Virus record (IMG/VR): IMGVR_UViG_3300042894_000388
Location: 1-35,061 of that record
Strand: one strand, 5' to 3'
DNA from: a virus
Length of the DNA stretch: 35,061 nt
Shown here: positions 912-29,442 of the stretch, piece after piece
How positions within the stretch are numbered: position 1 is the first letter of the stretch
Layout of the letters: every line of letters begins with the position of its first letter
Notes under the pieces: generated by a model
Told to the model about the DNA's origin: nothing
Databases searched by the model: none
Seen by the model: the letters and a program-made list of their open reading frames with translations, nothing else
Translations under genes and position numbers: made by a program

Positions 912-2981
912 TTACATTGTGCGGCTGGGCGGTTGCCGCATTCCGGTGGCGACGGTCTCTTGCAGAGCCTTCGCCGTGTTCACCACGTTGGTGCGCTCTT
1001 TCTGCTGAATGCCAGCAAGCACCTCAACGGTCTTGGCGCGGGTCTCTTCCGCACGCGCCAAGGTGTATTCTGTGTTGGCCTGAGCCTGGCCAGCCTTGGC
1101 CTGCGCTTCCATAGCGGCGGCCTGCAGGTAAAGCGCCTGCGGATCTGGCTGCTGCGCTGCCTGCATTTCGGCCAGCAGCTTCTCGCCTTCCTGCTCGGTC
1201 GGCTGGATGACGCCCATCTTGATCAGCTTGTCGCGGAAGTAGGCGCGCACCTCGCCGATGCCCTCGCCGTCCATGTTCATCATGGCCATCGATGTCAGCA
1301 CCTGCTGCGTCTCTGGATCTGGCGCGATCTGGATCATGCCCAACAGCGCGCGAACAGTGGCGCTGCGCTTGGTAGCCGAGGCCGGGCCGACATCCACAGC
1401 CACGTCAAACTTAGCGGTGGACAGGTCGTTTTCGTATTCGACTTCGCCGGTCTTGGGGTTGAGCATCGGCTTGCCGATCTCAATGCTGGACAACTCGCCG
1501 CCAAGGCCCACCGACTTCATCTTGCGGCCAGGCTCGACCACGATGTCACGCGCCATCGACAGCCAGACTTCACCGCAACGCTTCACGGCTTTGGCCATGT
1601 TAGACATGTAGATGTAGGTCTGCATATCCAGGCGCTGCTGGATCAGTTCCACGGCCTTGCCGCTGACGTTGGAAACGATTTCCTCGGCGGCGTCGGGCTT
1701 GCCCAGCAGATCGCTCATGTCCTGCTCGGTGATCTGCAACAGGCCAGCCAACGCAGGCGGGATCTGCGGCGGCTTGGTGTAACCGACCGGGCCGGCAAGT
1801 GTCTCACCGCCGTTGGCGTCGGTCACGGTGTTCAGGAGCAGGTAGGGATAGTTTCTGAGGTTGTCCTCGGACCACATCATCTCGTGGCCGGCCACCTGCT
1901 CGGGCGTGAAGATCGGTTTCTCAACGGTCGAAAGCGCGCTGATCTCGCCCAGCTTGGAAAGCTGCATGTTCTTCAGCCGCTGGGCGTCCTTAGCCAAACG
2001 CACATGACCCATGCACCGCTCGACGTTGTCCACGAACCAGCGCTTGCCATAGACGGGGATGATCGGGATCTGGTCGCCGGCAATGTAGCCGCTGTCTTCC
2101 AGAACCTTGCTGCCGCTCATAATGTACTTGCGCACCTTGCGGCGCTTCACGCGGCGCTGGCGGACCTCTTTGGTGCCGACAGCCTCAAGCATCATCTCCA
2201 GTTCTGGATCTTGCTCGAAATCGCGCTCTGAATACTTTTCTTCCTGCCCGTCAAGGGTCTGGAAAATGCGGATCAGTTCCGACGCCTCTTCGACGCGGTA
2301 GACCTCGGCCACATAAACGACATCAGGTGTCGCCCAGTCGAACGCCACCTGCTCGATGCCCTTGGGCCAGGTGGTCGGGTCATCTTCCCAGACTTCGCGG
2401 TAGGCATCGGGCGTCATCGCCGTCAGAACATAGCACATGCGCGCGTCCGACTTGTCTTGGCGCTTGGCATCCAGATCAAAGAACACGGTCGTGTCAGCGT
2501 CATAGATCGGCTCAATGCGGATGCGCTGCTTTTCGTTCTCTTCGTCGTACTCGTCTTCGTAGACAGCACGCAAGCGGAACGCACCAAAGCCACCGCCGAC
2601 AGCCTCCTCGAAGGCGTTGTCGTAGGCTTCATTGGCGCCGCTGTCCTGCTCGTCAGAACGGAACAGGCCGTCGCACACGTCGGCCATCTTGTCGTCGTCG
2701 GTGCCGTCCTTGCTCACGAAGTCAACCGTGATGCGGTTGTTGCGGTATTCGTTGATGATCCGCATGACGGCCAGGTGAACCTTGTTCACCTCAAACTTGG
2801 GCTTGTTTAGATATTGCTCATAGAGGCTTCCCTCCCACTGCGCGCCCGAGATCGAGTAAAAGCGGCGATCCTCCAAGCACTGCAAACGCTCATCGCGCAT
2901 GGTGCTTTGGATGGTGTCAAACTCTGACATCGCTTCGGCATGAACATTTGCAAGCCGCTGGTCTCTGGTCATGCGGGCCAA
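912..2981 (-). CDS. Portal protein, P22 type
   Basis: This 689-residue protein is the expected dodecameric DNA gate at one capsid vertex, which binds terminase during packaging and tail factors afterwards. Features seen are a charged N-terminus (RDERLQCLEDRRFYSI), the phrase GSLYEQYLNKPKFEVNKVHL, and a long helical Gln/Ala-rich C-terminus (about 600-680) suiting a barrel. The pattern and length match P22-type portals rather than the shorter lambda or SPP1 types. It lies between terL and scaffold, as in P22. The start is a TTG at 2981 with AAAGG eight bases upstream. The next in-frame ATG at 2972 would have that site 17 bases away, so TTG is preferred; the difference is three residues. Confidence 0.93.
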   Translation of the reverse strand: MARMTRDQRLANVHAEAMSEFDTIQSTMRDERLQCLEDRRFYSISGAQWEGSLYEQYLNKPKFEVNKVHLAVMRIINEYRNNRITVDFVSKDGTDDDKMADVCDGLFRSDEQDSGANEAYDNAFEEAVGGGFGAFRLRAVYEDEYDEENEKQRIRIEPIYDADTTVFFDLDAKRQDKSDARMCYVLTAMTPDAYREVWEDDPTTWPKGIEQVAFDWATPDVVYVAEVYRVEEASELIRIFQTLDGQEEKYSERDFEQDPELEMMLEAVGTKEVRQRRVKRRKVRKYIMSGSKVLEDSGYIAGDQIPIIPVYGKRWFVDNVERCMGHVRLAKDAQRLKNMQLSKLGEISALSTVEKPIFTPEQVAGHEMMWSEDNLRNYPYLLLNTVTDANGGETLAGPVGYTKPPQIPPALAGLLQITEQDMSDLLGKPDAAEEIVSNVSGKAVELIQQRLDMQTYIYMSNMAKAVKRCGEVWLSMARDIVVEPGRKMKSVGLGGELSSIEIGKPMLNPKTGEVEYENDLSTAKFDVAVDVGPASATKRSATVRALLGMIQIAPDPETQQVLTSMAMMNMDGEGIGEVRAYFRDKLIKMGVIQPTEQEGEKLLAEMQAAQQPDPQALYLQAAAMEAQAKAGQAQANTEYTLARAEETRAKTVEVLAGIQQKERTNVVNTAKALQETVATGMRQPPSRTM

Positions 2982-3042: not shown

Positions 3043-4269
3043 TCACCGTGCCATCGGCATGCTGACGGGGACAAGGCGGGCCTTCGGCTTGTCCTGCTTG
3101 GCCACGCGACGGGCGCCCTCGCAGGCATAGCGCAGCGCGTCGATGACGTGGTTTTCCTTGTCCTCCAGCACAGGCAATATGCTGCCCGTGTCCCGGTCGG
3201 TCTTGTAGCTGTAGAGCGTCAGTTCATCGATGGTGTGCTTGCAGCGCGGATGCACCACGATGTCAAAAGACTTCAGCCACTCGACGCCCTCCTCGACCGA
3301 TTTCGGCCCCTTGACCGCCGGCATGATCTTCGGAAAGCCGTTCTTGCGCATGTGGCTGATGGTCTCGGGCCGCGCGCTGTCGGCCACCATCGGCCAGCGC
3401 TCAGCCTCGGGGATCGTCATGAACAGCGAAGGCGTGTCAACGATCTCGCAGCCCACCTGATAGGCCTCATGGTCAATATATAGCTTCCGTCCTATAATGT
3501 GGCAGCGGATGCCAACGGTCGGGTCGGTGGCAAAGCCCCAGTCAGCGCCGAGGCGATGGACTGCATCGGGCGGTGCCTCGAAGTCCTCAATGGCCCAGTT
3601 CTTAAACACGCGGGTTTCGCTGTTGCGGACATATTCGCCCTTCCAGACGTGCAGATATTTGTCTGGATCGCGCCGCTTGTCGTATTCCATCTCGTCCTTG
3701 AGAACGTCAGGGAACCACGGGTTGTCGGTATAGTTCACCTCGACGATCACGCTGTCCGGCGGCGGGTTGGTGCCACGCAGCAGGCCCTCGATCGGGTCTG
3801 TGTCGAACCGTGGGTTCCAACTGAACAGCAGTTGCGAGCCGGGCTTGCGGATGGTCGGGCGCAGGAGATCCAGCGAGAACTGGCTGATTGACTGGGCCTC
3901 CTCCACCCATGCAATGTCGAACCCCTCCAGCGACTTCACGCTGTCGGCTGTGTGGTTCTGCATGCCCTGGAAAATGATGACGCCGCCGTGCGGGCATTTG
4001 ATCTCGGCCTGCTGCACCTGAAACAGATGACCGACGCCCAGTTCCTCGATCTTGTTTTCGATCAGCTTCTTGACAGACTGCTTCAGAGACTTCTGCACCT
4101 CGCGCACGCAGACCACGTCGGTCTTGCGCATCACGCAGCGCTCCACGATCCATTCGGCGAAGAAGGTTGACTTGCCAGATCCGCGCCCGCCGAACGCCCC
4201 GATGTAGCGGGCGCTCTCGCGTTGCAGGATCGGCAGCGCCCAGCGAGGCGTGTTGATGTTGAGGTTCAC
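3043..4269 (-). CDS. terL: Terminase large subunit
   Basis: This is the packaging motor and nuclease, 408 residues. The N-terminal ATPase has a Walker A (GGRGSGKST, residues 27-35) and a Walker B with catalytic carboxylates (IAWVEEA, 119-125). The C-terminal half has the RNase H-like nuclease acidic residues in GADWGF, VADSARPE and NHVIDALRYA. The pattern matches PBSX/Terminase_3-type large subunits and the length is normal for that group. The start is a GTG whose bases overlap the TGA of the 55-residue gene upstream (GTGA), so translation is probably coupled. Portal follows 61 bases downstream. The terminase family alone does not reliably give the packaging mode; headful packaging is likely from the P22-like context. 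Confidence 0.96.
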   Translation of the reverse strand: MNLNINTPRWALPILQRESARYIGAFGGRGSGKSTFFAEWIVERCVMRKTDVVCVREVQKSLKQSVKKLIENKIEELGVGHLFQVQQAEIKCPHGGVIIFQGMQNHTADSVKSLEGFDIAWVEEAQSISQFSLDLLRPTIRKPGSQLLFSWNPRFDTDPIEGLLRGTNPPPDSVIVEVNYTDNPWFPDVLKDEMEYDKRRDPDKYLHVWKGEYVRNSETRVFKNWAIEDFEAPPDAVHRLGADWGFATDPTVGIRCHIIGRKLYIDHEAYQVGCEIVDTPSLFMTIPEAERWPMVADSARPETISHMRKNGFPKIMPAVKGPKSVEEGVEWLKSFDIVVHPRCKHTIDELTLYSYKTDRDTGSILPVLEDKENHVIDALRYACEGARRVAKQDKPKARLVPVSMPMAR

Positions 4270-4433
4270 TTGCCCTGCTCAGGATCTCGCTTCATCATGC
4301 CGGTGATGTACATGTCCTGCGCGCTATCGCCGCGCTCTTGCGCAGCGATCTGATCACGCAGAGAACGGGCCATCGGGCTTTTGCCCTCACCGTTGGCCAT
4401 TAGACGTTGCAGTTGGCGCTCCAAGTAGTCCAT
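4266..4433 (-). CDS. Small hypothetical protein between the 1038-residue gene and terL
   Basis: This short gene encodes 55 residues, beginning MDYLERQLQRLMANGEGKSP and ending KRDPEQGK. GAGAGGG lies about ten bases before its ATG at 4433. Its first 47 bases overlap the end of the 1038-residue gene in another frame, and its TGA overlaps the GTG of terL. The protein is charged and probably helical with several Met, Gln and Arg residues, and has no membrane segment. I recognise no family. The overlap at both ends and the good ribosome site argue that it is translated and couples terL expression to the upstream gene. A shorter version from the ATG at 4400 is possible. Confidence 0.65.
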   Translation of the reverse strand: MDYLERQLQRLMANGEGKSPMARSLRDQIAAQERGDSAQDMYITGMMKRDPEQGK

Positions 4434-7400
4434 CGTACTGATCCCTCTCGATCACGTTTGTCTCATAGTGCATGAGGTTTGCAGCGCTTATGCCCTGCTC
4501 TGTTTTCTGTATATCGTTTGCGATATTCGTGAACAGATCTTCGACCTCGTCGATCTTTGCTGCCTTTTCGGCAGGCGACATTGCCGCCCACGCATCCCTA
4601 CCCATATCGAATTCTGGGATGTATTGGAAGCGCAAACCATTGATGCCGGCGACGGCCTCGTCTGCCATCCCAGCCTGCGCGCTAGGGCGATCCATCACGC
4701 GGCTGTCGGTGACAAAGGTGAACCCATCGACACCGTACTGCGTCAGCCTGTCGGACAGGCGGCGCGCGAAGTCTGGATCTTGCCGATTGCGGAAATAGAT
4801 CTCAACGCCCGGTCGGCTTTCTGCCGTGCGCTGCGGCATAACCTTGGAGATGAATGCCGCGTCCTGATCAGCCTCCTTGGCCACCTCAACCATGCGCCGC
4901 GTCACGCCGGCAGGGTCAAAGTTCTTTCTGACCACGAACTCAGCGTTAAACGCGCGCTCATCGGACTGCATGAAGCGGCCATAGGTGTTGTTGATCTGGT
5001 ACGTCACGACGCTTGGATCTGCCTTGGCAGGCTCGCCCAGGCGCGCTGCGATGTCGGCCTGCTGCACGTTGGTGGGCCGCATGCCAGGGCGCTCAACGCT
5101 GATGCCGAGAACATACCGGGCCAACGGGGCTTTCATCTCGTCCAGTTGCTTTTGAGCCGAGACGACGCCAGCACTGTGTGCCGCTCTCGCCTCTTCAACT
5201 CTTGCTGCGTACTCGGCTTCGGTCTCTTTCACCCGCTTATTCGGAGCCTTGAAGCTGGCGGTCGTTGCGCGGCGCAGTTCCTTAACTGCCGCTGGATCTG
5301 GCGCACCGGCAAGGGACGATTCAAATTCAAACGAACCGCCTTCGCCGGCTTTGTTCGTCCATCCGTTGTTGGTCCACTTTTCCTTCTCAATGAACCATGC
5401 AACGGCCTGGAGGTCGTCAGGGTTCATGTCCTGAAGGTTAGGCGCGACAGATCGGATGATGCCCTGCTTGTTGATCTGATCGGCAGCATCAGCCATGACC
5501 CTTTGACCAAAGCCAAACTCGCCGCCAATCTTTGGCTTTTCTAGCGTAGAACCCTTTAGGTGATCGCCAACGACACCTTTTTCGACCGGGGGCGGCAAAC
5601 GATCCAGGCCCGCAAGCCTGCGCAGATGGCGCGCTGCCCAAACGTCGATGGTGGCGGCGTTGGTGTATCCAATCAGGTTGCCGGTAAAGTTTGGCGTCTT
5701 GGGCGCCCCAGTAGCGACGCGGAACATGTCAAATAGTGCTTTGGTCGCTGCCGGGCTGTTGGCATTGAAAAGAGATCCTGCCGCGTTCGTAATGAGCCGG
5801 AACGGATTGTCAGGATCTTTGTGCATCTGCTGGAGCGCGGTTGGGTTTACTTTGCCCTTCTTCAGCATCTCATCGTACATGCGGAGTTCTTCGTCATATT
5901 CCCCGCGCGCAAAGCGGCGCATGACTTCAATGGCATTGTTCCAGTTCATCTCGACGCCTGTTTGGGCCGACGTTGCGCCGAGAACATCAGCGAAAACGTC
6001 GCCCATGCCACCGAATTCTTTGCGCAGACTGCTGCGCATTGCCCTGTACCAGTTCGCCTCATTGACGATGGCGATGGCTGCCGGATCTCCAGCCTTCACG
6101 CGATCAGCAAGCAGCTTAATCTCGTTGACCTGACGCGAGGCCATCGTGCGCTGCCAATCTTCTGGAGACACGCCCATAGGCGGCCTGTCGAAGCTGTACG
6201 GAACCTCTTTATAGGTAACCTCAAAGCCATCCTTTTTGGGATCAATCTTTGACACCTCCATGACATTGGCCCATCCATCCGCCGCCGGATAAGAGGCCTT
6301 CTGCCCAGCGACCTGCTCTTGAACAGGGGCCAGCTTGGCTTTTGGCACAGACGCCTTGATGATCGCCCTTTCAGGCTTGCTGACCAGGTTTGCCACGACA
6401 GGCGCAGCCACCTGCGGCGCAGGTTGTGCCGGGGCTTGGCGTAGCAACGCAGGCGGCGGAGCTGGCAGTGCATTGGGCGATGTCGGAGGCGGCGGCAGGG
6501 CTGCGCTCTCCATCGTCACCGGCGGCGCTGCTGTAGGTTCTGGTGCCATTGCCGGTGTGATGGGCGCGGCTGGTGCCTCCTGCATGGCGCGATCAACCTC
6601 ATCAAAGGTCAACGGCGGGCGGCCAGCACCTGCGCCCGTTTCAGGCGCGCGGACAGGCTGCGGCGGGATCGGCGGCCCGAAGACGCTGAACAGCGTGTTG
6701 GGGTCCATGCGTGATACGTTCCTGGCGATGCCCTCTGCAATCATCTTTCCAGCCGGGAACATCTCGGCCATGCCAGCGGCTGCCTGCACGGCGCCAAGAG
6801 CGGTCGTCAGAGGGTCACCTTGCTGATAGCCTCGCGACGCTGCTCTGCTCCCCTCTTCGACGTTGAACACGCCCGAGAGCGCAGCAGGCGCAGCAGCGAT
6901 TGCACGGCCAGCCATGCCAATTCCCTTTGCAGCTAAAGATGCGCTGCCGCCAAGCATCGAGGCGATGTCGATCAGCCCCATGCTTTCCAAGATCCCCTGC
7001 GCGTTGGGGTCACCCATCACACGGCGGGCATACTTCCCGGCTTCATATGCATCCATGCCGCCTTGCTGCATCAGCGCGTCTTGCAGCCTGTAGGTAGCTT
7101 CTTGGCGCATGGTGTAGTCTGGCGCTTGCAGAACGTCTGCCGGCGCACGCTGCCGATCCCGATCCATCTGCTGCGAGAACGGCATGGCAGGCTGGCCAGC
7201 GGTCGAAAACGCTGCAACTTCCATCGGGCTGTACCCAGCCGCCGCGATGTCCTGCGGGCTGTACGAACCCTGCATGCCGCGCAGATCCGATGCGTATGCG
7301 CTCATCTCGGCCATGCGCTGGGGCGATGCGTAAGCCTGCGGTCCTTGCATCGGACCGCGCGGCATCATCACGGGCTTCGGTCTCTCAGGCATCGCGTACT

Positions 7401-7503
7401 GCCGACCAGACGCAGTCCGATAGATCATGCGTCCAAGTTCGTCCTGGCCTACAGGCGTGTCACGCTCTGGCCGCGCGTCTGATGGAAGATCGAAAATCGC
7501 CAT
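4387..7503 (-). CDS. Large multidomain protein of unknown function, polyvalent-protein-like
   Basis: At 1038 residues this is the largest gene, sitting between terS and terL, where P22-type phages have no gene of this size. Residues 1-170 are Met/Gln/Pro-rich and disordered-looking. Residues about 175-270 include small-residue hydrophobic stretches (ASLAAKGIGMAGRAIAAAPA). Residues about 285-420 are a Pro/Ala linker. Residues about 425-740 form a compact domain with TSAQTGVEMNWNNAIEVMRR and NAATIDVWAARHLRR; I suspect similarity to DUF7178-type proteins, whose layout recalls helix-hairpin-helix glycosylases, but I cannot confirm it. The C-terminus contains RPGVEIYFRNRQDPDF and LRFQYIPEFD, phrases seen in large phage polyvalent proteins. 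The ATG at 7503 has GAAGGG about nine bases upstream. It might be packaged and ejected with DNA. Function unknown. Confidence 0.85.
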   Translation of the reverse strand: MAIFDLPSDARPERDTPVGQDELGRMIYRTASGRQYAMPERPKPVMMPRGPMQGPQAYASPQRMAEMSAYASDLRGMQGSYSPQDIAAAGYSPMEVAAFSTAGQPAMPFSQQMDRDRQRAPADVLQAPDYTMRQEATYRLQDALMQQGGMDAYEAGKYARRVMGDPNAQGILESMGLIDIASMLGGSASLAAKGIGMAGRAIAAAPAALSGVFNVEEGSRAASRGYQQGDPLTTALGAVQAAAGMAEMFPAGKMIAEGIARNVSRMDPNTLFSVFGPPIPPQPVRAPETGAGAGRPPLTFDEVDRAMQEAPAAPITPAMAPEPTAAPPVTMESAALPPPPTSPNALPAPPPALLRQAPAQPAPQVAAPVVANLVSKPERAIIKASVPKAKLAPVQEQVAGQKASYPAADGWANVMEVSKIDPKKDGFEVTYKEVPYSFDRPPMGVSPEDWQRTMASRQVNEIKLLADRVKAGDPAAIAIVNEANWYRAMRSSLRKEFGGMGDVFADVLGATSAQTGVEMNWNNAIEVMRRFARGEYDEELRMYDEMLKKGKVNPTALQQMHKDPDNPFRLITNAAGSLFNANSPAATKALFDMFRVATGAPKTPNFTGNLIGYTNAATIDVWAARHLRRLAGLDRLPPPVEKGVVGDHLKGSTLEKPKIGGEFGFGQRVMADAADQINKQGIIRSVAPNLQDMNPDDLQAVAWFIEKEKWTNNGWTNKAGEGGSFEFESSLAGAPDPAAVKELRRATTASFKAPNKRVKETEAEYAARVEEARAAHSAGVVSAQKQLDEMKAPLARYVLGISVERPGMRPTNVQQADIAARLGEPAKADPSVVTYQINNTYGRFMQSDERAFNAEFVVRKNFDPAGVTRRMVEVAKEADQDAAFISKVMPQRTAESRPGVEIYFRNRQDPDFARRLSDRLTQYGVDGFTFVTDSRVMDRPSAQAGMADEAVAGINGLRFQYIPEFDMGRDAWAAMSPAEKAAKIDEVEDLFTNIANDIQKTEQGISAANLMHYETNVIERDQYDGLLGAPTATSNGQR

Positions 7504-7506
7504 GCC

Positions 7507-7851
7507 TTAGCCCTTCGGATCGATGATGGTTCGCTTGATTTCGACCGGGATGGCGCCGCCGTCCGGGCCGGAGTGTTCAATCTCATGCTTCTCACGCCAG
7601 CCTGCCCGTGTCTTCATCCAGAAGATCATGGCGGCGGTGTCGCCCTTGGTGGCTTTGTTGAACAGCGCACCGCCGACCGATGCGTTAGCACGGGCGCGGG
7701 CTTGGTCCAATTCCTCGCGGTAGTATTTGGTCAGCGTCTTGCCGTCGATGCCGAGGATGTCGGCAATGACGGCTTGAGGCGTGCCGATGGTCGCATGAAG
7801 CTGGACAAGCTGGCGGCTTTCCTTTGATGGTTCGTGCGGGTTCCGGCTCAT
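7507..7851 (-). CDS. terS: Terminase small subunit
   Basis: This 114-residue protein is expected to recognise the packaging site on phage DNA and recruit the large subunit. The N-terminus carries a helix-turn-helix (TPQAVIADILGIDGKTLTKYYREEL, here split over about residues 24-48). It is followed by the phrase ALFNKATKGDTAAMIFWMKT and then AGWREKHE, which is characteristic of a widespread family of phage small terminases. The C-terminus ends in a basic segment (PVEIKRTIIDPKG). Its ATG overlaps the stop of the methyltransferase gene (ATGA). The large gene starts four bases after its stop, so terS and terL are separated by about 3 kb rather than adjacent. Confidence 0.9.
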   Translation of the reverse strand: MSRNPHEPSKESRQLVQLHATIGTPQAVIADILGIDGKTLTKYYREELDQARARANASVGGALFNKATKGDTAAMIFWMKTRAGWREKHEIEHSGPDGGAIPVEIKRTIIDPKG

Positions 7852-9059
7852 GCTGCGATCCTCTTACTTGCCAGCGCGTTAAACGTCTCGCCCGTCGCTT
7901 CCAGCGTTGCCTCTTGCCCGGTGAAGTCCTGCCAGCGCTTGACGATCACGTCGCAGTATTTCGGGTCAAGTTCCATCATGCGGCAGTCGCGGGCTGTCTT
8001 TTCGCAGGCGATCAGCGTGGAGCCAGAGCCGCCAAATAGGTCAACCACGCAGGTCAATCCGCTGCCCCAATTTTCAAAGAACCACAAAGCCAAGGCGACA
8101 GGCTTTTGTGTCGTATGCAGGCGGTCCTCGCCCTTTTCCTTATTCTTGAAGCCGCCCCATTGAAGCCAGCACATCTTGTTGCGCTCTTTGCGCGACCAAC
8201 AAAGCTCAAAGTCACCGTGCGGGTTCGCTGCTTCAGTCTCACGCTTTTTGTTCCAGACGATTATGCCTCCGCGCCCTAGTTTGTCTGGATAATACTGATA
8301 CCCCCAGACAAACATTTCCTTTGCGCTCTTAAACATCTGCACAAGAAACGACGGGTCAAAATCATCACCATCACCAATAATCATTTCTGCCTTGTTGCGC
8401 TTGTTTGTCACGCCAGCCTTGTTTCCCGCGAATTTGTCGCTGCTGTAGGCAATTCCATACGGCGGATCAGTGAACACCATATCAGCCTTCCGGCCCGCCA
8501 TCAGCTTGTCCACGGCGTCAATGCTGGTGCTATCCCCGCACATCAGGCGATGCCGCCCAAGCAGCCACACGTCGCCCTCGACCGTGACAGGCACCGCAGG
8601 CACATCTGGCACCGCGTCCTCGTCGGTGAGGCCCTCGGTTGGCTCGGCCAAGAAGTTACCGATCTCGTCGGGATTGAAGCCTGTCAGGCTCAGGTCAAAG
8701 CCCTCGGCGTCCAGATCCTGCAATTCAATCTTCAGCATATCGTTGTCCCAGCCGGCATCCAGCGCAAGGCGGTTGTCTGCGATGACATAGGCGCGCTTTT
8801 GCGCCTCGGTGAGGTGCGCGGCCTCGATGACGGGCAGCGTGGCCAGGCCCAGCTTCTGGGCTGCCATGACGCGACCGTGGCCTGCGACGATGCCGTTCTG
8901 GCCGTCCACGATGATGGGGTTTAGAAAGCCAAACTCGCGGATGCTGGCGGCGATCTTGTCCACCTGCTGCGGCGAATGCGTGCGGCTGTTGCGGGCGTAT
9001 GGGATCAGGTCGGCCACTGAGGCGGTTTTATAGTTCGGAAATTCTTTGTTCGCCGTCAT
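7848..9059 (-). CDS. ParB-domain DNA methyltransferase, probably N6-adenine
   Basis: This 403-residue protein is expected to methylate phage DNA using S-adenosylmethionine. Residues about 10-110 are a ParB/sulfiredoxin-like domain (SIREFGFLNPIIVDGQNGIV, then AGHGRVMAAQKLG). The catalytic motif TDPPYGIAYSS (around 197) precedes the SAM-binding DLFGGSGSTLIACE (around 340). That order is typical of beta-class amino-methyltransferases, with the target-recognition region between. DPPY favours adenine N6 over cytosine N4 but does not prove it. The ATG at 9059 has GAGGTGG six bases upstream; a longer in-frame reading to 9350 lacks sense and overlaps the next gene. No restriction enzyme is adjacent, so it acts alone, plausibly as anti-restriction. 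Confidence 0.92.
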   Translation of the reverse strand: MTANKEFPNYKTASVADLIPYARNSRTHSPQQVDKIAASIREFGFLNPIIVDGQNGIVAGHGRVMAAQKLGLATLPVIEAAHLTEAQKRAYVIADNRLALDAGWDNDMLKIELQDLDAEGFDLSLTGFNPDEIGNFLAEPTEGLTDEDAVPDVPAVPVTVEGDVWLLGRHRLMCGDSTSIDAVDKLMAGRKADMVFTDPPYGIAYSSDKFAGNKAGVTNKRNKAEMIIGDGDDFDPSFLVQMFKSAKEMFVWGYQYYPDKLGRGGIIVWNKKRETEAANPHGDFELCWSRKERNKMCWLQWGGFKNKEKGEDRLHTTQKPVALALWFFENWGSGLTCVVDLFGGSGSTLIACEKTARDCRMMELDPKYCDVIVKRWQDFTGQEATLEATGETFNALASKRIAA

Positions 9060-9106
9060 GTTTTCCACCTCATCTCGGGCAGTGCGGCCCGGTCGCTCGG
9101 CGCATT

Positions 9107-9328
9107 CTAACGCTTCACCGCCAAATATGCAAACTGTCCGACGCCCTCGCGCTTGCAGAAGAGGAAGACCAGCTTGTCGGTCTCGGCTCTGGCAGCCGCG
9201 TGGCGATGCAGGCCGCCGCAGAACTGTCCGATGTGGTAGACTATGCGGTCGCCCTTCTGCGCCTCGGCCAGCGCGTGGTAGAGGGCATCCGGCTTCGTCT
9301 CGCCGGTGATGTAGATCGTGCTGCTCAT
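9107..9328 (-). CDS. Small hypothetical protein, possibly winged-helix-like
   Basis: This 73-residue protein lies between the 192-residue gene and the methyltransferase. Its ATG overlaps the upstream stop (ATGA). It contains GDRIVYHIGQFCGG, then a His/Ala/Arg helix, then KLVFLFCKREGVGQFAYLAV with a basic end. A layout of G-D-x-x-x-Y-H-x-G, helix, then a beta-hairpin ending near the C-terminus occurs in many small phage proteins that look like single winged-helix domains. The comparison is from memory. It could bind DNA, but nothing here shows a target. Two cysteines (CGG and CKR) are too isolated for a zinc site. Confidence 0.7.
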   Translation of the reverse strand: MSSTIYITGETKPDALYHALAEAQKGDRIVYHIGQFCGGLHRHAAARAETDKLVFLFCKREGVGQFAYLAVKR

Positions 9329-9903
9329 TCGATGACATCCCCGAAATCAATTTCGTCTTCCAGATCCTGCGGCGCGCGTCTGACCGCCTTCACCTCTGCG
9401 CCGGGGAATGCCAGTTTCACCGCGTTCACCAGCCCGTTACGGTGTTCGTGCAGGGCGACAGCCACCTCGCGCATGGTGTGGATCGCGATGCCGGGCCGCT
9501 TGGCGTAGGCTGCCGGCCATTCCCTGCCATCCTCGATGATGCCGTAGACCTGGCCCTCGTATTCGTGTTCCCAGATCATCGGATCGGAAACGGGCCGACC
9601 GAGGCTGACGGCTTCGGCGTCCATTGCGGTCAGCCCGCGCAGACAGATCTCGACCCAGAATTTCACCTTGTCGGGATCTTGCGCGTCTATGGCGGCGTTC
9701 AGGCCAGCCATCGCCTTACCCCACTTTGCGGCGCTTTCGACCGAGACGAGTTCGGGCAGGCGGTCGATGCCCCAGCGTTTGTCCATCTCGCGCACTGCCT
9801 TGTCGAAGGGTGCCAGCGACAGGTCCGCTTTGATCTCATTTGCCGTCGCTCCTTTGTGCAGGATGCGGTCGTCTTTCTTCTGGCGTGTTGGTCTCTGTGC
9901 CAT
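9325..9903 (-). CDS. Hypothetical phage protein
   Basis: This 192-residue protein is probably cytoplasmic. The N-terminus is basic (MAQRPTRQKKDDRILHKGAT). The middle contains WGIDRLPELVSVESAAKWGK and WVEICLRGLTAMDAEAVSLG, then a W-E-H-E-Y-E-G-Q-V-Y-G stretch, and the C-terminus is acidic (DLEDEIDFGDVIE). The fold looks mostly helical with a short beta hairpin. I do not recognise a named family. AAAGGAG is eight bases before the ATG, which follows the G-rich repeat region at 9921-10068, so the leader of its message is unusually G-rich. It opens a tight run of coupled genes reaching to terS, so a role in late replication or early packaging is possible. Confidence 0.8.
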   Translation of the reverse strand: MAQRPTRQKKDDRILHKGATANEIKADLSLAPFDKAVREMDKRWGIDRLPELVSVESAAKWGKAMAGLNAAIDAQDPDKVKFWVEICLRGLTAMDAEAVSLGRPVSDPMIWEHEYEGQVYGIIEDGREWPAAYAKRPGIAIHTMREVAVALHEHRNGLVNAVKLAFPGAEVKAVRRAPQDLEDEIDFGDVIE

Positions 9904-10076: not shown

Positions 10077-12392
10077 TCAAATTTCATCGCCATTGATCCA
10101 CTCTCCGACGATGATGACGCTAGTCTCTCGGCCCTTCTTTTTGTCGAAGACCTTCTCGGTGGCCAGCACATTTGTCCGCATCCATGTCTTGATAATTGAC
10201 GAGACCTTGGCCCGTCCTTTCTTCTCTGTGATGTCGATGCCAAGCAGATCGGCGACAGGCACGCCTACCCATTTTGGAGACTGCGAACTTTCGCGCAGCG
10301 GCTCGCCGTCTGTGTGAGCGTCTGCAACGAGGCGCTGCACGGCCTTGGCATCCTTTCCGCTGACGCCGTCAAAGGCGTCTGGCAGCGTGTACGGGACGCA
10401 GACACCGATCCACTCACCGTTGTCGATCTTGACGCCTTCCATCTTGCGGTAGACAGCGGCTGCTGCTGGCGGGGCCAGGTTGGCCTTGCCGTCGTCCACC
10501 CGGAAGATGCTGCGCGCCTCGTTCTCGTCGATGCCCAGTTTGCTGGCATCATCTGGTGACATGCGGTTGACCACCCGCGCAGCCCGTGCCGCCCCGATCA
10601 GGCTGCCTGCGCCACGCACGCTGTCGATGCTGGCATCCTCTCCGTTGCCTTTGCGGATGTGGTGGACCAGGCCGATGGCTGATTTCGTCTCGTCAGCCAC
10701 GCGCCTTATTTCCGCCACAATGGCGTTCACCGCCATGTTGTCGTTCTCGTTGATGTTGTGGGCGCCGACGAAGGGATCGATGAAGACGCAGCCGATCTGC
10801 TTTTCGGGGATCTTGGCGCACAGGTATTCGACCAGCTTGGTATTGGGCAGGACGCCTTCGCGGGTCTGGATGCCGAACTTGAGGCTGAAGTCCCGGCCCG
10901 CGTTGACGAACAGGCGGCCCTCGACCTCGGCGGGCTTGATGCCGTAATGCCGCATTGCAGCGAGAACGCGGCGCTGGATCTCTTCGAGCGGGTCTTCAAG
11001 GTTGACGATCCACACGTTGGTGCGCTCTTTCACCTCCTCGCCCAGCAGCGGGCGGCCTGTCACGATGGCCAGCGCCTCGACGATCTGGAGGCTGGTCTTG
11101 CCGATTCCGCCTGCCGATGCCAGCACGCTGACGAAGGATCTCAGATAGTGGTGGGCGTATATCCAGCGGCGCGGTTCGATGCTGGCCTCGTCGAACATAT
11201 CGTAGAGCGTGGGCCAATCCGGGGCCGCCTCGGGGGCGTCTGGGGTGTCGAAGCTGTCCAGGTCTATGTCATCGGCCTGTGCGCTGGCAGGTGCCTCTGG
11301 CGCAGCCTGCGGGGCCACATAGTCGAAATCATCCATGCCGTTCTCTGGCACGTCGATCTCGGCTTTGGCCGGGCTGATCTCCAAGCCATAGGCACGCACG
11401 GCCTTGTCGAAATCCCCGTCATGCTCAAAATGCACATAAAGGTCCCATGCATCACCCCAGCAGAAGGAATTTTCGCCCAGCGATTTCGACCTGCCGATGC
11501 CGGCGGCTGCGTCAGATCCAGACAGGCTTACCCAATGCGATAAGAAGTTCTGCGTGGCGAAGCTGGGCGACGTTTGATACCGCGAACGGTAATGCTGGGA
11601 AGATCCGCGCCGCTCGTATTGGTAGCGGGCGAACAGATCCTCGATGGTGTGGTCTGCGTTGAAGGCGTCCACCGGGCTGACCTGATCGGGGAACTTCTGC
11701 CGACGCTCGGCACGCTGGCGCTCACGGTCGGCACGCGCCCGGTCGGCCTGCTCGGCGGCGAGGCGGTACTGCTCCAGCCTTCTGTCAATTTCTTGACGGA
11801 TGGCGCTGTCGGCATCCAGACGCAGCGTGCCGGCGCGGATGATGCGGTGCTGGTAGAAGATCGGGGTCAGATCGGGGTTGCGCTTGGCCAGAGGTACGTT
11901 GGGCAAATAGATCGGCTGCCCGCAGCGCGCCAGCGCGCCGTCTGGGTGTATGCCATTGGCATGCAGCAGATCGAAGAGGGCGGTCTGGGCCAACTCATAG
12001 TCAGCGCCTGACAGCGCGCCGGCCAGCGGCAGCAGGACACGCCATTTGCGGTTCTCTGGGCTTGCGCCTGATGATGAGTAAGCAAGCAGGCTGACAGGGC
12101 CGCAGACAGCCTCCACGGCGGCCAGCACGTCGTCCAAGCTGGGGTTGCCCTTGTCGATGTCGAGGGCCAGCATGCGGAAGGCGCCACGCTCGCGCTGGGC
12201 TTCGTGGGATCTGCCGTCGTGTTCACGGTAGGTTGAGGGAATGAAGAAATCGGCGTCGATCTTTTCTTTCGCCTGCGGTGTCGAAACCATGCGGGCAATG
12301 TCGCCCCAAGAGATGCCGGGATAAACCTGGCCGGGCTTGTCGATGAGCGTGTGGAAAGAGCCGGGGGCTGTCAAAAAGCGGATGTCAGACAT
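10077..12392 (-). CDS. Primase-helicase fusion (AEP-like primase plus RepA/DnaB-type ATPase)
   Basis: This 771-residue protein probably unwinds DNA and makes primers at the phage fork. The N-terminal third has LALDIDKGNP (about 75-85), the DxD pattern of archaeo-eukaryotic-type primases, with later SGASPENRKWRVLLP and RCGQPIYLPNV. A charged linker follows. The ATPase domain has Walker A SAGGIGKTS (about 423-432), a Walker B region IGCVFIDPF (about 537), and LVHHIRKGNGEDASIDSVRG, as in RepA/AAA_25 hexameric helicases. The C-terminus resembles a winged-helix tail. I chose the ATG at 12392; a GTG at 12416 adds eight residues but has no ribosome site. It overlaps a 15-codon leader peptide, suggesting coupled translation. 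Confidence 0.88.
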   Translation of the reverse strand: MSDIRFLTAPGSFHTLIDKPGQVYPGISWGDIARMVSTPQAKEKIDADFFIPSTYREHDGRSHEAQRERGAFRMLALDIDKGNPSLDDVLAAVEAVCGPVSLLAYSSSGASPENRKWRVLLPLAGALSGADYELAQTALFDLLHANGIHPDGALARCGQPIYLPNVPLAKRNPDLTPIFYQHRIIRAGTLRLDADSAIRQEIDRRLEQYRLAAEQADRARADRERQRAERRQKFPDQVSPVDAFNADHTIEDLFARYQYERRGSSQHYRSRYQTSPSFATQNFLSHWVSLSGSDAAAGIGRSKSLGENSFCWGDAWDLYVHFEHDGDFDKAVRAYGLEISPAKAEIDVPENGMDDFDYVAPQAAPEAPASAQADDIDLDSFDTPDAPEAAPDWPTLYDMFDEASIEPRRWIYAHHYLRSFVSVLASAGGIGKTSLQIVEALAIVTGRPLLGEEVKERTNVWIVNLEDPLEEIQRRVLAAMRHYGIKPAEVEGRLFVNAGRDFSLKFGIQTREGVLPNTKLVEYLCAKIPEKQIGCVFIDPFVGAHNINENDNMAVNAIVAEIRRVADETKSAIGLVHHIRKGNGEDASIDSVRGAGSLIGAARAARVVNRMSPDDASKLGIDENEARSIFRVDDGKANLAPPAAAAVYRKMEGVKIDNGEWIGVCVPYTLPDAFDGVSGKDAKAVQRLVADAHTDGEPLRESSQSPKWVGVPVADLLGIDITEKKGRAKVSSIIKTWMRTNVLATEKVFDKKKGRETSVIIVGEWINGDEI

Positions 12393-12432
12393 TGTGGCCA
12401 CCGCGACACTTGCCACCAGATATTGCGTGCAT
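12385..12432 (-). CDS. Putative 15-residue leader peptide upstream of the primase-helicase
   Basis: An ATG at 12432 is preceded by GCAGGAG, a strong Shine-Dalgarno at good spacing. It opens a 15-codon frame (MHAISGGKCRGGHNV) whose TGA overlaps the primase-helicase ATG (ATGTCTGA). The main ATG itself has only a weak site (GGTGG). The arrangement suggests that ribosomes load at the leader and restart on the main gene. The peptide has no recognised function and no run of one regulatory amino acid, so coupling is likelier than attenuation. It could be chance, since only 15 codons are open. Confidence 0.5.
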   Translation of the reverse strand: MHAISGGKCRGGHNV

Positions 12433-25670: not shown

Positions 25671-27572
25671 TCATTGCGGGGCTGCCTGCGGCTGCTCTTC
25701 AGCGGCCTTCTCGGCGCGCAGTGCCACCGTTAGCTGCTTGATGAGTTCCTGCTCCTGCGGGCTGCCTTTGGTGGTCTGCGGCAGCTTCAACAGGATGTTG
25801 CGAACAGGCGCGCTCTCATACAGGCGGGCGATGCCGCCGATGGTGGCTCCGCCAACGATGCCGGCACCAGCGCCGCCTAGAATGTCGGTCAAGACAGCCG
25901 CTCCGACGACAGGGACAGCCTGCACGCCAGTCGGTGGCGAGACGCCAGCGCGCCCAGCTTGCTCGGTCATCTTCAGCGCGCGGGTCAGCCCCTCAACGGC
26001 CTTCAGATCCTGCCCAGAGAAAAACACGCCGATAGGAGATCCAAGGCGGATCAACTGACGCTTGAATTGATCTGGGCTTAGGTTCTCGAAGTTGCCGCCG
26101 ACCTTACTGAAGGCTTCCTGCAAAACAGCCGTGCGGGCGTTGCGCTTGCCTTCAGCGGATAGGCCGCGATAGAGCGCCTTGATGTCGCTTGGCTTGGCTG
26201 AGAACAGCATCGTGCGGATGACTTCAGGCGACGTGTCACCCTTCGCCAATGCGGCCTTCATCGCGCCAAGTTCTAGCTCACCTGCCATGCTGGCAAGCTG
26301 CTTGTTGGCGATGTTCCACTTGTCGAAATCACGGCGCTGGCCGTTGGCTTTGATGTAGTCTGCCATGTCTTCGCGCAGCGGCGCATAGATGCGGCTCAGA
26401 ACCTTCTCACCTTCGCTACGAACAGCGGCCAGACTTGGATCGGTGAACGCCTCGCCGATCTGCTTGCGCAGAACCTCAATGGTCGCCAGCGGCTGGCCCT
26501 GAACGACTGTCTGCTTCTGGCCGTTTGGAAGCGCGACCTCTCGGGTGCCGGTCAGGTCGTCACGCCAAGTGACCAACCGATCAACCACGGGCTTGAATTG
26601 CGTCGGGCTGATCTTGTTCAGGCGCGCGATTTCTTCGTCAATCTTCGCGACAGATTTTGCCACTGGAACAGTGCTATTCGGTTGCGACAGGCGGTCAATC
26701 ACCTCAGTCTTCATGCCGGTGTATTTGGTCAGGTTCTCGCCGCGACGGGCCAGAAGATCCTTCGCCACGTTTGAGATGATGGTGTTGTCTGCGGCTGACG
26801 CTTCGGTGACGCCGTAGTTGCGCAGAAGGTCAACAGATGCGTCGATGCGCTCTTGCTGCTGTGCAGCACGCGGGCCACCCGTGCCTGCCATCGGGATCAT
26901 CTCGCCAGTGCGTTGCAGCCAGCGACCTGCAAACGTCGTCGGCTGGCGCACGTCAGTGGTCATCACGCGGATGCCGACATCTTCAGCCTCGCGCACGGCG
27001 GCAGGCAATGCAGCCGATGGGGCTTCCGCACTGATGCCAGCGGCGCGCCCACCAGCGACACCGCCAGCCAAACCAGCCGCAAGTTGCGCGCCCGGTCCGC
27101 CGCCTGCTTCTGCAACAACCTGCGCCGCGCCGCCACCGCCACCGCCAGCAGCAGCCTGCGCGCCGGGTTGGGCGGCAAGCTGACCAGCGATGCGCTGCGC
27201 TCCAGTAGTCAATACGCGCTCTGCACCGCGCGCGATAGCGGCCTGACCGCCAGCACCAACGGCACCCTCACTGATGGCGCCAATCACGCGCTCGGTGGCC
27301 GTCTCAGGCTCAGGCACGCCAAGATCTGTTAGCGCACGCTTAACTTGCTCTCGCAGCGGCTGCGTCTCTGTCCCAAACAGGTAGTTCTGCACTGCAGCAA
27401 TCGGGTCATAGGCGAGGCCGACGATGCCAGCGGCGCCTTGAGCCGCAGCGCGCCCAGTCAACCCGAGTTGGCGCTCGAGATCGGCGGTTTTGCCTTGTGG
27501 CTCTTGCGCCTTTGATTTAGCCGTTGCCTCGGCAATTGCAGCAGCAAGCGCGATTGGGTCTAGATCTGCCAT
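25671..27572 (-). CDS. DNA ejection protein (gp16 position)
   Basis: This 633-residue protein is comparable in length to P22 gp16, and lies in the same place, third of the ejection genes before the tailspike. Residues 1-200 are Ala/Gly-rich with GGGGGG and several hydrophobic stretches. Residues about 220-520 are helical and charged. Residues about 575-605 (VPVVGAAVLTDILGGAGAGI, then VGGATIGGIARL) could enter a membrane, as expected of a protein helping DNA cross the inner membrane. I chose the ATG at 27572, which overlaps the upstream TAA (TAATG). Assignment rests on synteny and composition. Confidence 0.75.
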   Translation of the reverse strand: MADLDPIALAAAIAEATAKSKAQEPQGKTADLERQLGLTGRAAAQGAAGIVGLAYDPIAAVQNYLFGTETQPLREQVKRALTDLGVPEPETATERVIGAISEGAVGAGGQAAIARGAERVLTTGAQRIAGQLAAQPGAQAAAGGGGGGAAQVVAEAGGGPGAQLAAGLAGGVAGGRAAGISAEAPSAALPAAVREAEDVGIRVMTTDVRQPTTFAGRWLQRTGEMIPMAGTGGPRAAQQQERIDASVDLLRNYGVTEASAADNTIISNVAKDLLARRGENLTKYTGMKTEVIDRLSQPNSTVPVAKSVAKIDEEIARLNKISPTQFKPVVDRLVTWRDDLTGTREVALPNGQKQTVVQGQPLATIEVLRKQIGEAFTDPSLAAVRSEGEKVLSRIYAPLREDMADYIKANGQRRDFDKWNIANKQLASMAGELELGAMKAALAKGDTSPEVIRTMLFSAKPSDIKALYRGLSAEGKRNARTAVLQEAFSKVGGNFENLSPDQFKRQLIRLGSPIGVFFSGQDLKAVEGLTRALKMTEQAGRAGVSPPTGVQAVPVVGAAVLTDILGGAGAGIVGGATIGGIARLYESAPVRNILLKLPQTTKGSPQEQELIKQLTVALRAEKAAEEQPQAAPQ

Positions 27573-28750
27573 TACTGCCCCGTCTGCTTTTGATAGATTT
27601 CCCAAGCCATTTCTCGGACTTCAGGTGCCAGCGCAGCGACAGCCGGGTTGGCCATGAACGTGGCCTTTGCTTCGTCTGCGGCGGCTGGCGTGGTCCCAGG
27701 TGCTGGTGCGGCCTCTTCTTCGGCTTCACTTGGCGCGCCAAAAATTTGGTTTTCGTCTAGACCATACTGCCTGATGACTGGCATCAGAGAAACACGCGCC
27801 CGGGTTTCAGATTTCGCTGCGGCGGCAAACAGGTCTTCCGCCTGGCTCTTAAAGGACGCGCGCTGTTCAGGGGTCAGCCGTTCACCGGCGACTGCTTGGT
27901 TGTAAGTGTTTCTAATGGCTGTCGGGATGCCACCAGAGTTTTGAGCAGTTGAGAATTCACCCTCACGGACTGTCGAACCGGGATCAAGCATCTTCATATA
28001 GTTGAAGATCAGCGCAATGTCGCCAGGGCCTGTGTCCTGAGACGCTGCCACTCGGTCGAAAGCCTGCGCCACCGTTCTGTAGTCCTTGGTAAGATCGGTG
28101 TATTCCTTGCGCACCTGCTTCTCGCGCTCGAACAACTCTTTATTGTCGCCACCCTGCCCGGTCTCCTTGATGATCGCGTCCATGACGCTAGGAGGCAGCG
28201 CGCCTGAAGCCGTCAACAGCGCCAGCGTGGCCACGCCTTGGCCCTGCGGATCGATCTCCACCAGCTTGCGGTTGGCACGCAGGGCAGCGGCTTCCTGCGC
28301 GTCTCCTGCGTTCTCTGCGGCTGCAATGCGCTCGTCCAGCATGGCCAAGGCCACCTCGGGCTTGCCGCCCAGAAGACTGGTCGAAAGCTGGATGCCGAAT
28401 TGCGTGTCAGCCTCACGGCGCGGTGCTTCCATCGCCTCAAACGCACTCTGGAACTCGCCAAAGGTCGAGGCGTTGTTCAGCGCAAACTGGTTCAGCGCGT
28501 CGGTCGTCAGCGTGCCACTGATCGCCATGTCACGCAGGCCCGAAAGCTGCGCTTGCATGGCCTCGGTCTGCGCACGCTGGCGCTCTGCCTCGGCACGGCG
28601 CATTTCAAACTCAGAGGCAGCGCGGGCCTCCGCGGCGGCACGCATGTCCATAACCTGGCGCTGCTCGATGTCAGCCCGCCCAAGTCCATAGCCGCGCATG
28701 GCCTCCTCAATGGGGTTCTGCACGTCCAACATGTAGTTGATGGGTTCCAT
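27572..28750 (-). CDS. DNA ejection protein (gp20 position)
   Basis: This 392-residue, largely helical protein has an N-terminal charged coiled coil (about 25-70: QVMDMRAAAEARAASEFEMR, RRAEAERQRAQTEAMQAQL), a helical middle (LDERIAAAENAGDAQEAAAL) and a Pro/Ala linker before a C-terminal helix. It is second of the three ejection genes, in the P22 gp20 position, and somewhat shorter than gp20. It is probably packaged in the virion and released into the cell. It overlaps both neighbours by TAATG. Sequence similarity to gp20 was not established. Confidence 0.73.
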   Translation of the reverse strand: MEPINYMLDVQNPIEEAMRGYGLGRADIEQRQVMDMRAAAEARAASEFEMRRAEAERQRAQTEAMQAQLSGLRDMAISGTLTTDALNQFALNNASTFGEFQSAFEAMEAPRREADTQFGIQLSTSLLGGKPEVALAMLDERIAAAENAGDAQEAAALRANRKLVEIDPQGQGVATLALLTASGALPPSVMDAIIKETGQGGDNKELFEREKQVRKEYTDLTKDYRTVAQAFDRVAASQDTGPGDIALIFNYMKMLDPGSTVREGEFSTAQNSGGIPTAIRNTYNQAVAGERLTPEQRASFKSQAEDLFAAAAKSETRARVSLMPVIRQYGLDENQIFGAPSEAEEEAAPAPGTTPAAADEAKATFMANPAVAALAPEVREMAWEIYQKQTGQ

Positions 28751-29442
28751 TAGAACGCCCCTCCGCCGTAGAACATGCCCTGCCCGAAGGTCAGCGGTGC
28801 GCTGGCACCTTGCGGCGTGTAGCCTTGATACGCCATGCCGCGACCGATGGCCATGCCAGCGCCGCCTAGCAGATTGCCAAATGCTTGCCCTTGTGCCAGC
28901 GCGCTGCCAGCACGCGCGGCGCCCTGCTGCTGCATCAAGCTAGAGATGTTCTGACCAGTCTGCATGCCCGCCGTTCCAACACCAGCCGCTGCGTTCTGAC
29001 CAGCCGATGCAAGCCCTCCGAGACGGCTGTATTGCTGCTCAATCAGGCCAGACAGGATCTGCGGGCGGAACTGGGCCAGCGCGCCCTGCACGTTGCCACC
29101 ACGCAGGCCGCCCGTGGCAGCGGCGTTCTGCAAGATCGCGGTCTCACCCTGCTGCGCCAGCGCGGCAAACTCCGGGCCTTGCTCAATGGCTTGCAGCGCC
29201 GCACGCTGGGCATCCGCACCGCCGACGCCAGCCAAAGCCATCTGCTGGCCAAAAGCCGACGTTCCGCCAGTGACAAACGGCGCAAGAAGTTCGCGCACCG
29301 CGTCGAACTGGCGGCGCTGCTCATCGATGCCCTGCTGCGCGGAGGCAACTTGCGCCCGAGATCCTCTGCGTGCTGCGTTGGATTGTACGCCGGCGCTCAG
29401 AAGAGAGCCGCCAAGCAGGGCAAGACCTGTGCTAATGGCCAT
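28750..29442 (-). CDS. DNA ejection protein (gp7 position)
   Basis: At 230 residues it is close to P22 gp7 in size and first of the three ejection genes. The N-terminus is hydrophobic (MAISTGLALLGGSLLSAGVQ) and the rest is Ala/Gly/Gln-rich and helical (SAQQGIDEQRRQFDAVRELL; GNVQGALAQFRPQILSGLIE), with Gly-rich stretches to a GGGAF end. I chose the ATG at 29442, with AAGGA about eight bases upstream; it overlaps the acetyltransferase gene by 11 bases. The longer reading to 29532 lies within that gene. Similar proteins precede gp20-type genes in many podoviruses. Confidence 0.76.
   Translation of the reverse strand: MAISTGLALLGGSLLSAGVQSNAARRGSRAQVASAQQGIDEQRRQFDAVRELLAPFVTGGTSAFGQQMALAGVGGADAQRAALQAIEQGPEFAALAQQGETAILQNAAATGGLRGGNVQGALAQFRPQILSGLIEQQYSRLGGLASAGQNAAAGVGTAGMQTGQNISSLMQQQGAARAGSALAQGQAFGNLLGGAGMAIGRGMAYQGYTPQGASAPLTFGQGMFYGGGAF

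What the first reader, a model, noticed from the sequence alone, without database searches (positions are those of the whole stretch)
4387..7503. 1038-residue multidomain protein inserted between terS and terL
Terminase subunit genes are normally adjacent in P22-type phages; here 3.1 kb separates them. The protein has a disordered start, a Pro/Ala linker, a central compact domain with TSAQTGVEMNWNNAIEV and a conserved-looking TIDVWAARHLRR, and a C-terminal part with LRFQYIPEFD. These traits resemble polyvalent proteins that are thought to travel with the DNA. The central part may be DUF7178-like with a helix-hairpin-helix glycosylase layout, which would suggest base excision or an anti-defence activity. 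No function is known for this arrangement.
Basis: partly seen in the sequence, partly recalled or inferred. Interest (0 to 1): 0.68.

Follow-up and report, generated by a model that had tools for sequence, protein, structure and literature searches.

The report
Virion-module protein with glycosylase-like domain
In this uncultured phage a large protein of a family otherwise encoded among virion and DNA-injection genes is wedged between the two DNA-packaging genes, and its middle domain looks like a distant base-removing (DNA-glycosylase) enzyme, suggesting that such phages may inject a base-excising enzyme together with their DNA.

Summary
In detail: a 1038-aa ORF (minus strand) lies between terS and terL in a P22-type packaging module. 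The closest annotated relative by TerL (MW202867.1) has the same methylase-TerS-TerL-portal order without it, so it is an insertion. The family is large (462 IMG/VR contigs in one scan, none among 50,697 annotated phage records). Wherever its neighbours could be named they are virion genes: TerS|TerL, portal|scaffold, beside portals, or most often between T7-gp15-like and internal-virion-protein genes. Relatives are fused to SLT transglycosylase, glucosaminidase, InPase, ART-PolyVal, PBECR5 and LPD22, parts of 'polyvalent' injected proteins. The central domain (430-742) is homologous to DUF7178 and to ~200-aa solo phage proteins, some annotated 'N-glycosylase/DNA lyase'. It keeps an invariant Lys602...Asp620 pair with the 18-residue spacing of EndoIII-type HhH-GPD glycosylases and a 'SAQ' motif. 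Profile comparison reaches HhH-GPD only through the solo intermediate (score 39, E 4e-5; 60 shuffles peak at 20). The confident AlphaFold model has no significant PDB match. Best reading: an extra, virion-delivered polyvalent protein with a divergent HhH-GPD-like N-glycosylase domain plus an unidentified C-terminal domain. Packaging, activity and substrate are untested. New variant of a known kind.

The parts
4387..7503 (-). 1038-aa virion-module protein, the insert between terS and terL
   Evidence: Open frame; homologues in 76 and then 462 IMG/VR contigs
6709..7503 (-). Variable N-terminal part (residues 1-265): polar start, then Gly/Ala-rich hydrophobic stretch at residues 170-262 (membrane-interaction-like)
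   Evidence: Composition and hydropathy; poorly conserved and gappy in the family alignment
6313..6708 (-). Pro/Ala-rich linker (residues ~266-397)
   Evidence: 23% Pro over residues 262-400
5278..6216 (-). Central domain, residues 430-742; DUF7178 superfamily, HhH-GPD-like motifs: SAQ 512-514, K602, D620
   Evidence: A5 alignment of 92 sequences with invariant K and D; AlphaFold pLDDT 89.7, pTM 0.85; hhalign to DUF7178 E 1.2e-6, to the solo family E 1.5e-14
4414..5136 (-). C-terminal alpha/beta domain, residues ~790-1030, ferredoxin-like topology, many invariant polar residues, function unknown
   Evidence: Alignment A1; AlphaFold pLDDT mostly 70-93; only weak PDB matches, to ferredoxin-like proteins
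7507..7851 (-). Terminase small subunit, 114 aa
   Evidence: phrog_309 1.6e-20
4266..4373 (-). 35-aa ORF between the insert and TerL, overlapping the TerL start by 4 bp; conserved in close relatives
3043..4269 (-). Terminase large subunit, 408 aa
   Evidence: PF04466 2e-35
912..2981 (-). P22-type portal protein
   Evidence: PF16510 2.3e-158

Best explanation
The gene encodes an extra virion-associated polyvalent protein: a cargo that is packaged with, and injected alongside, the phage genome. Its variable N-terminal part, with a hydrophobic Gly/Ala segment and a flexible linker, would serve packaging and passage through the portal (inferred). Its central DUF7178 domain is a divergent HhH-GPD-superfamily N-glycosylase: a SAQ loop as in EndoIII, Lys602 as nucleophile (beta-lyase) and Asp620 as the conserved catalytic acid, as in EndoIII/OGG1. 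It would remove a base (damaged or modified, in DNA) at the start of infection, either to clean the incoming genome or to act on host or modified DNA as counter-defence. A second, C-terminal alpha/beta domain probably adds another enzymatic function. Shown here: insertion site, virion-module context, fusions of relatives to polyvalent domains, DUF7178 homology, invariant K/D pair with EndoIII spacing. Inferred: packaging, injection, N-glycosylase chemistry. Unknown: substrate and benefit.
For: Census of 211 distinct central domains: every neighbour that could be named is a head, portal, terminase, tail-tube or internal-virion gene; the commonest setting is gp15-like | internal virion protein, 49 loci (neighbours identified). 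Fusions in relatives: SLT 7.7e-28; glucosaminidase, InPase 3.2e-40 and ART-PolyVal 9.1e-20; LPD22 3.4e-20; PBECR5 9.4e-17. DUF7178 giants carry InPase, LPD38 and ART-PolyVal. hhalign central vs DUF7178 score 52 (100 shuffles peak at 20.9); vs solo phage family score 101, E 1.5e-14 (60 shuffles peak at 24.5). Solo relatives are annotated 'DNA glycosylase' or 'N-glycosylase/DNA lyase' in several records. Solo plus central profile vs 49 HhH-GPD proteins: score 39.0, E 3.9e-5 (60 shuffles peak at 20.0), with LSxQ, K and D in register; a divergent Q_salvage protein as positive control scores 39.1. K602 and D620 invariant in 92 of 92; K-to-D spacing 18, as in 30 of 37 EndoIII-type proteins. The window phage also has its own P22-type ejection genes, so this is an addition rather than the conduit itself.
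Against: The central family alone is not significantly similar to HhH-GPD (A5 scores 17.1 and 21.3, within shuffles), nor does the PDB profile search return a glycosylase. Foldseek of the confident model against the PDB gives nothing below E 0.98; the only coherent superposition is human QNG1 at TM 0.38, E 8.7. The glycosylase names in GenBank are transferred annotations, not experiments. The window's protein has no fused named polyvalent domain itself. A gene's position among virion genes does not prove packaging. No product has been assayed or found in virions.
Confidence: 0.55

Rival explanations
1. It is a packaged polyvalent protein, but the central domain acts on nucleotides or RNA (an N-glycosidase of a free nucleotide, tRNA or an immune signal nucleotide) rather than on DNA.
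For: The only coherent PDB superposition is QNG1, a queuosine N-glycosidase (TM 0.38/0.36); DUF2419 is described as structurally similar to DNA glycosylases (PMC9406330). Frequent fusion partners InPase and ART act on nucleotides or NAD (PMC5512222).
Against: The QNG1 hit has E 8.7; no sequence similarity between the central profile and a Q_salvage protein. The SAQ motif, which belongs to DNA glycosylases, is retained.
Confidence: 0.2
2. It is a structural or ejection-conduit protein of the T7-gp16 kind whose domains scaffold DNA passage; conserved residues serve DNA binding and not catalysis.
For: Position of relatives in the gp14-gp15-X ejection operon; SLT and glucosaminidase fusions typical of ejection proteins; hydrophobic Gly/Ala segment.
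Against: The window phage already has gp7-, gp20- and gp16-like genes, and T7-like relatives have a separate internal virion protein next door. The same domain occurs as ~200-aa solo genes among small non-structural genes of actinophages. The K/D pair is invariant.
Confidence: 0.13
3. It is a terminase accessory or packaging regulator recruited between terS and terL.
For: Three bp from terS and close to terL in the window clade.
Against: Relatives sit at many other places (portal|scaffold, ejection operon), and MW202867.1 does without it.
Confidence: 0.04
4. It is a selfish insertion (homing-type element) that happens to sit in late genes.
For: Found at several positions and absent at the homologous site of MW202867.1.
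Against: No homing-nuclease-type family matched; nameable neighbours are confined to virion modules; fused to effector domains.
Confidence: 0.02

Closest known systems
Large uncultured-phage proteins in BFVD (A0A6J5PV58; A0A6J5RG41 'Inorganic pyrophosphatase domain-containing protein')
   Same: Same core fold and 30-32% identity (E 7.7e-31 and 2.0e-27)
   Different: Larger multidomain proteins; function not described
DUF7178 (PF23802) and solo actinophage/cyanophage/roseophage proteins (e.g. Gordonia phage Culver gp178, Rhodococcus phage Shagrat gp113 'DNA glycosylase')
   Same: Homologous central domain with shared invariant K and D motifs (hhalign E 1.2e-6 and 1.5e-14)
   Different: Solo forms are ~200 aa and stand among small non-structural genes where looked at; the central domain here has insertions and a C-terminal partner domain
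HhH-GPD DNA glycosylases (EndoIII/MutY/OGG1, PF00730)
   Same: K-to-D spacing of 18, SAQ motif, motif order
   Different: No HhH-GPD Pfam match, no significant fold match, no canonical LPGVG hairpin and no cysteines for an Fe-S cluster in the domain
Phage polyvalent proteins (Iyer et al. 2017, PMC5512222)
   Same: Multidomain, virion-gene context, relatives fused to InPase, ART, PBECR, LPD domains
   Different: That paper's text names no glycosylase; the TerS|TerL location of this clade was not found described
T7 gp16 / P22 gp16 ejection proteins
   Same: Operon position in many relatives; SLT fusion in one
   Different: No detected sequence similarity; the window phage has separate P22-type ejection genes

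Membership tests
DUF7178 (PF23802) | Pfam match above gathering score (27 bits) | tested here: not met
   17.1 bits for the whole protein and 21.6 for the core; all 34 relatives match weakly, best 1.7e-5
DUF7178 (PF23802) | Homology and shared conserved motif | tested here: met
   hhalign prob 90.7, E 1.2e-6, score 52 vs shuffle maximum 20.9; K, F, D, W, R shared
HhH-GPD superfamily | Catalytic Lys/Asp pair with about 18-residue spacing | tested here: met
   K602/D620 invariant in 92 sequences; spacing 18
HhH-GPD superfamily | Significant profile similarity | tested here: inconclusive
   Alone no; with solo intermediate E 3.9e-5, score 39 vs shuffle maximum 20
HhH-GPD superfamily | Fold match to solved HhH-GPD structures | tested here: not met
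   No PDB hit below E 0.98; only QNG1 superposes coherently, TM 0.38. Helix N-termini at K and D agree with the layout
HhH-GPD superfamily | N-glycosylase / AP lyase activity | not testable with these tools
   Needs an assay
Polyvalent proteins | Several distinct domains, fused with known polyvalent domains | tested here: inconclusive
   Two conserved domains plus variable N-terminus here, no named polyvalent domain in the window protein; relatives fused to InPase, ART-PolyVal, PBECR5, LPD22
Polyvalent proteins | Encoded with virion/portal-terminase genes | tested here: met
Polyvalent proteins | Packaged and injected | not testable with these tools
   Needs virion proteomics
T7 gp16-type ejection protein | Sequence similarity to internal-virion-protein families | tested here: not met
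   No PHROG of internal virion proteins matched this family

The most novel reading that the evidence does not exclude
Many aquatic podoviruses carry a virion cargo, found at several places in their late genes, that injects a base-excising HhH-GPD-type N-glycosylase with the genome, as counter-defence, host attack or genome clean-up: an unrecognised class of virion-delivered base-excision enzymes, the mirror image of the bacterial anti-phage DNA glycosylases.
Probability: 0.38. Interest if true: 0.8.

Novelty: new variant of a known kind. Interest (0 to 1): 0.6.

Why it matters
The family is found in hundreds of IMG/VR contigs yet absent from 50,697 annotated phage records, so it is common and unnamed. 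If the central domain is an injected N-glycosylase, base excision joins the list of tools that enter a cell with phage DNA, the counterpart of the bacterial glycosylases reported to provide antiviral defence (title and abstract of PMC11078745). The invariant Lys/Asp pair makes this directly testable, and the link to the ~200-aa solo genes of culturable mycobacteriophages, Gordonia phages and roseophage SIO1 gives genetically tractable relatives.

Tried and rejected
HMMER against Pfam, PHROGs and the PDB gave no confident match for the window protein. The first AlphaFold model of the whole core had poor confidence around the K/D motif; a 92-sequence alignment cured that. Direct hhalign of the central family to HhH-GPD: not significant, register right with one profile and not with the deeper one. 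QNG1/Q_salvage homology: only one divergent member could be fetched, no similarity. SAM-lyase or HPPK for the C-terminal domain: weak ferredoxin-like matches only, E about 0.1 or worse, not claimed. tblastn of four family members against annotated phages: no match. The domain is rare in bacterial chromosomes (1 of 398 genomes, the one already known), so a host gene captured by chance was rejected. No held paper mentions DUF7178; a literature search for phage N-glycosylase/DNA lyase found none.

Full report
WHAT IS THERE. The window is 35,061 bases of an uncultured P22-type podovirus (virus record), coded mainly on the minus strand. In transcription order: primase-helicase 10077-12416, a 192-aa gene, ParB-like/DNA methylase 7848-9350, TerS 7507-7851, the 1038-aa gene 7503-4387, a 35-aa ORF 4373-4266, TerL 4269-3043, P22-type portal 2981-912, scaffold 886-23.

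INSERTION. In close relatives the order TerS - this gene - TerL is kept (L001, L003, L010, L011). The best annotated relative by TerL, MW202867.1 (72.8% identity), has methylase (44%) - TerS (41%) - TerL - portal - scaffold with TerS running into TerL, and no homologue of the insert in the record. Xanthomonas phage PBR31 and two other records also have TerL right after a small gene. So the gene (with the 35-aa ORF) is most simply an addition at that site.

FAMILY AND PLACES. One scan of IMG/VR found 462 encoding contigs; none of 50,697 annotated phage records matched four family members by tblastn. Among 211 distinct central domains, every neighbour that could be named belongs to a virion module: gp15-like | internal virion protein (49), other halves of that setting, TerS|TerL, portal|scaffold (L089), beside portal-like genes (about 20), between two head genes (L017, L078). 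In T7-like relatives the order is major head protein - tail tubes - gp14-like (phrog_418/805) - ~570-860-aa protein - this family - internal virion protein (phrog_6651) - tail fibre. Many neighbours, above all on short contigs, could not be named, and the names came from a reference set built from virion genes, so the census shows consistency and does not exclude other places. Complete homologues range from 391 to 3913 aa; 39 of 150 exceed 1500 aa.

POLYVALENT LINK. Relatives carry, in one polypeptide with the central domain: SLT transglycosylase (L015, 7.7e-28); LPD22 (L081, 3.4e-20; L226); glucosaminidase, InPase and ART-PolyVal (L253); PBECR5 (L241). These are domains of the polyvalent proteins of Iyer et al. 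(PMC5512222), which those authors argue are packaged and injected. The window phage also has P22-type ejection genes (gp16-like 25671-27605, 27572-28750, gp7-like 28750-29532), so this protein adds to them.

CENTRAL DOMAIN. With 92 diverse sequences, AlphaFold gives a confident helical model of residues 430-742 (pLDDT 89.7, pTM 0.85). K602 and D620 are invariant in 92 of 92. K602 starts one helix and D620 immediately precedes the next. The domain is homologous to Pfam DUF7178 (hhalign E 1.2e-6; score 52 against a shuffle maximum of 20.9). DUF7178 itself occurs in 2,000-3,600-aa phage proteins with InPase, LPD38 and ART-PolyVal. The domain is also homologous to a ~200-aa solo family in mycobacteriophages, Gordonia, Rhodococcus and Streptomyces phages, cyanophages and roseophage SIO1 (hhalign E 1.5e-14, score 101, shuffle maximum 24.5). 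Several solo members are annotated DNA glycosylase or N-glycosylase/DNA lyase; this is annotation and not experiment.

IS IT HhH-GPD? The motif order SAQ...K...D...R matches EndoIII-type glycosylases, and the K-to-D distance is 18 as in 30 of 37 such proteins here. The solo profile against 49 HhH-GPD proteins gives score 34.4 (shuffle maximum 21.2); solo plus central gives 39.0, E 3.9e-5 (shuffle maximum 20.0), both in the catalytic register; a divergent Q_salvage protein, a known glycosylase relative, gives 39.1 as positive control. Against this, the central family alone scores within shuffles and the structure search finds no significant PDB match, with QNG1 (DUF2419) the only coherent superposition at TM 0.38, E 8.7. 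I rate an HhH-GPD-like origin about 0.7 and N-glycosylase activity on DNA about 0.45-0.5.

C-TERMINAL DOMAIN. Residues ~790-1030 form a fairly confident alpha/beta domain with strings of invariant polar residues. PDB matches are weak ferredoxin-like proteins. It is absent where the protein ends after the central domain (L083), so it is a separable partner. Function unknown; probably enzymatic.

MECHANISM. Most likely the protein is packed with DNA in the head, leaves through the portal, and once inside excises a base through K602/D620. Packaging, ejection and chemistry are inferred. Which base, and whether this repairs the incoming genome or attacks host or modified DNA, cannot be decided here. 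Rivals are a nucleotide or RNA N-glycosidase, and a non-catalytic ejection protein.

NOVELTY. Polyvalent proteins and phage glycosylase-like proteins are known kinds; a virion-module protein with a DUF7178/HhH-GPD-like domain, inserted between terS and terL in this clade, is a new variant. The text of the polyvalent-protein survey contains no 'glycosylase' and no held paper names DUF7178.

Noticed in passing
window 4266-4373 (-): 35-aa ORF (MARSLRDQIAAQERGDSAQDMYITGMMKRDPEQGK) between the large gene and TerL, overlapping the TerL start; conserved as protein in eight close relatives.
   Followed up: partly
window 7848-9350 (-): ParB-like N-terminal domain fused to a DNA methylase directly upstream of terS; same order in MW202867.1.
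   Followed up: partly
window 25671-30534 (-): P22-type ejection set (DNA transfer protein, DNA ejection protein) plus a short separate transglycosylase gene at 29989-30534.
   Followed up: partly
L418:4887-5516: ~200-aa solo DUF7178-like family in 152 phage records, inconsistently annotated (hypothetical, repressor, glycosyltransferase, N-glycosylase/DNA lyase); roseophage SIO1 gp9 and cyanophage 9515-10a gp9 belong to it.
   Followed up: yes
L067, L056, L076, L004: The family gene is split into two adjacent frames in a few contigs, by frameshift, sequencing error or real splitting.
   Followed up: no
L084 (Euryarchaeota MAG contig PBMS01000049.1): 2557-aa relative in a T7-like late operon in a contig binned to an archaeon; host assignment doubtful.
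   Followed up: no
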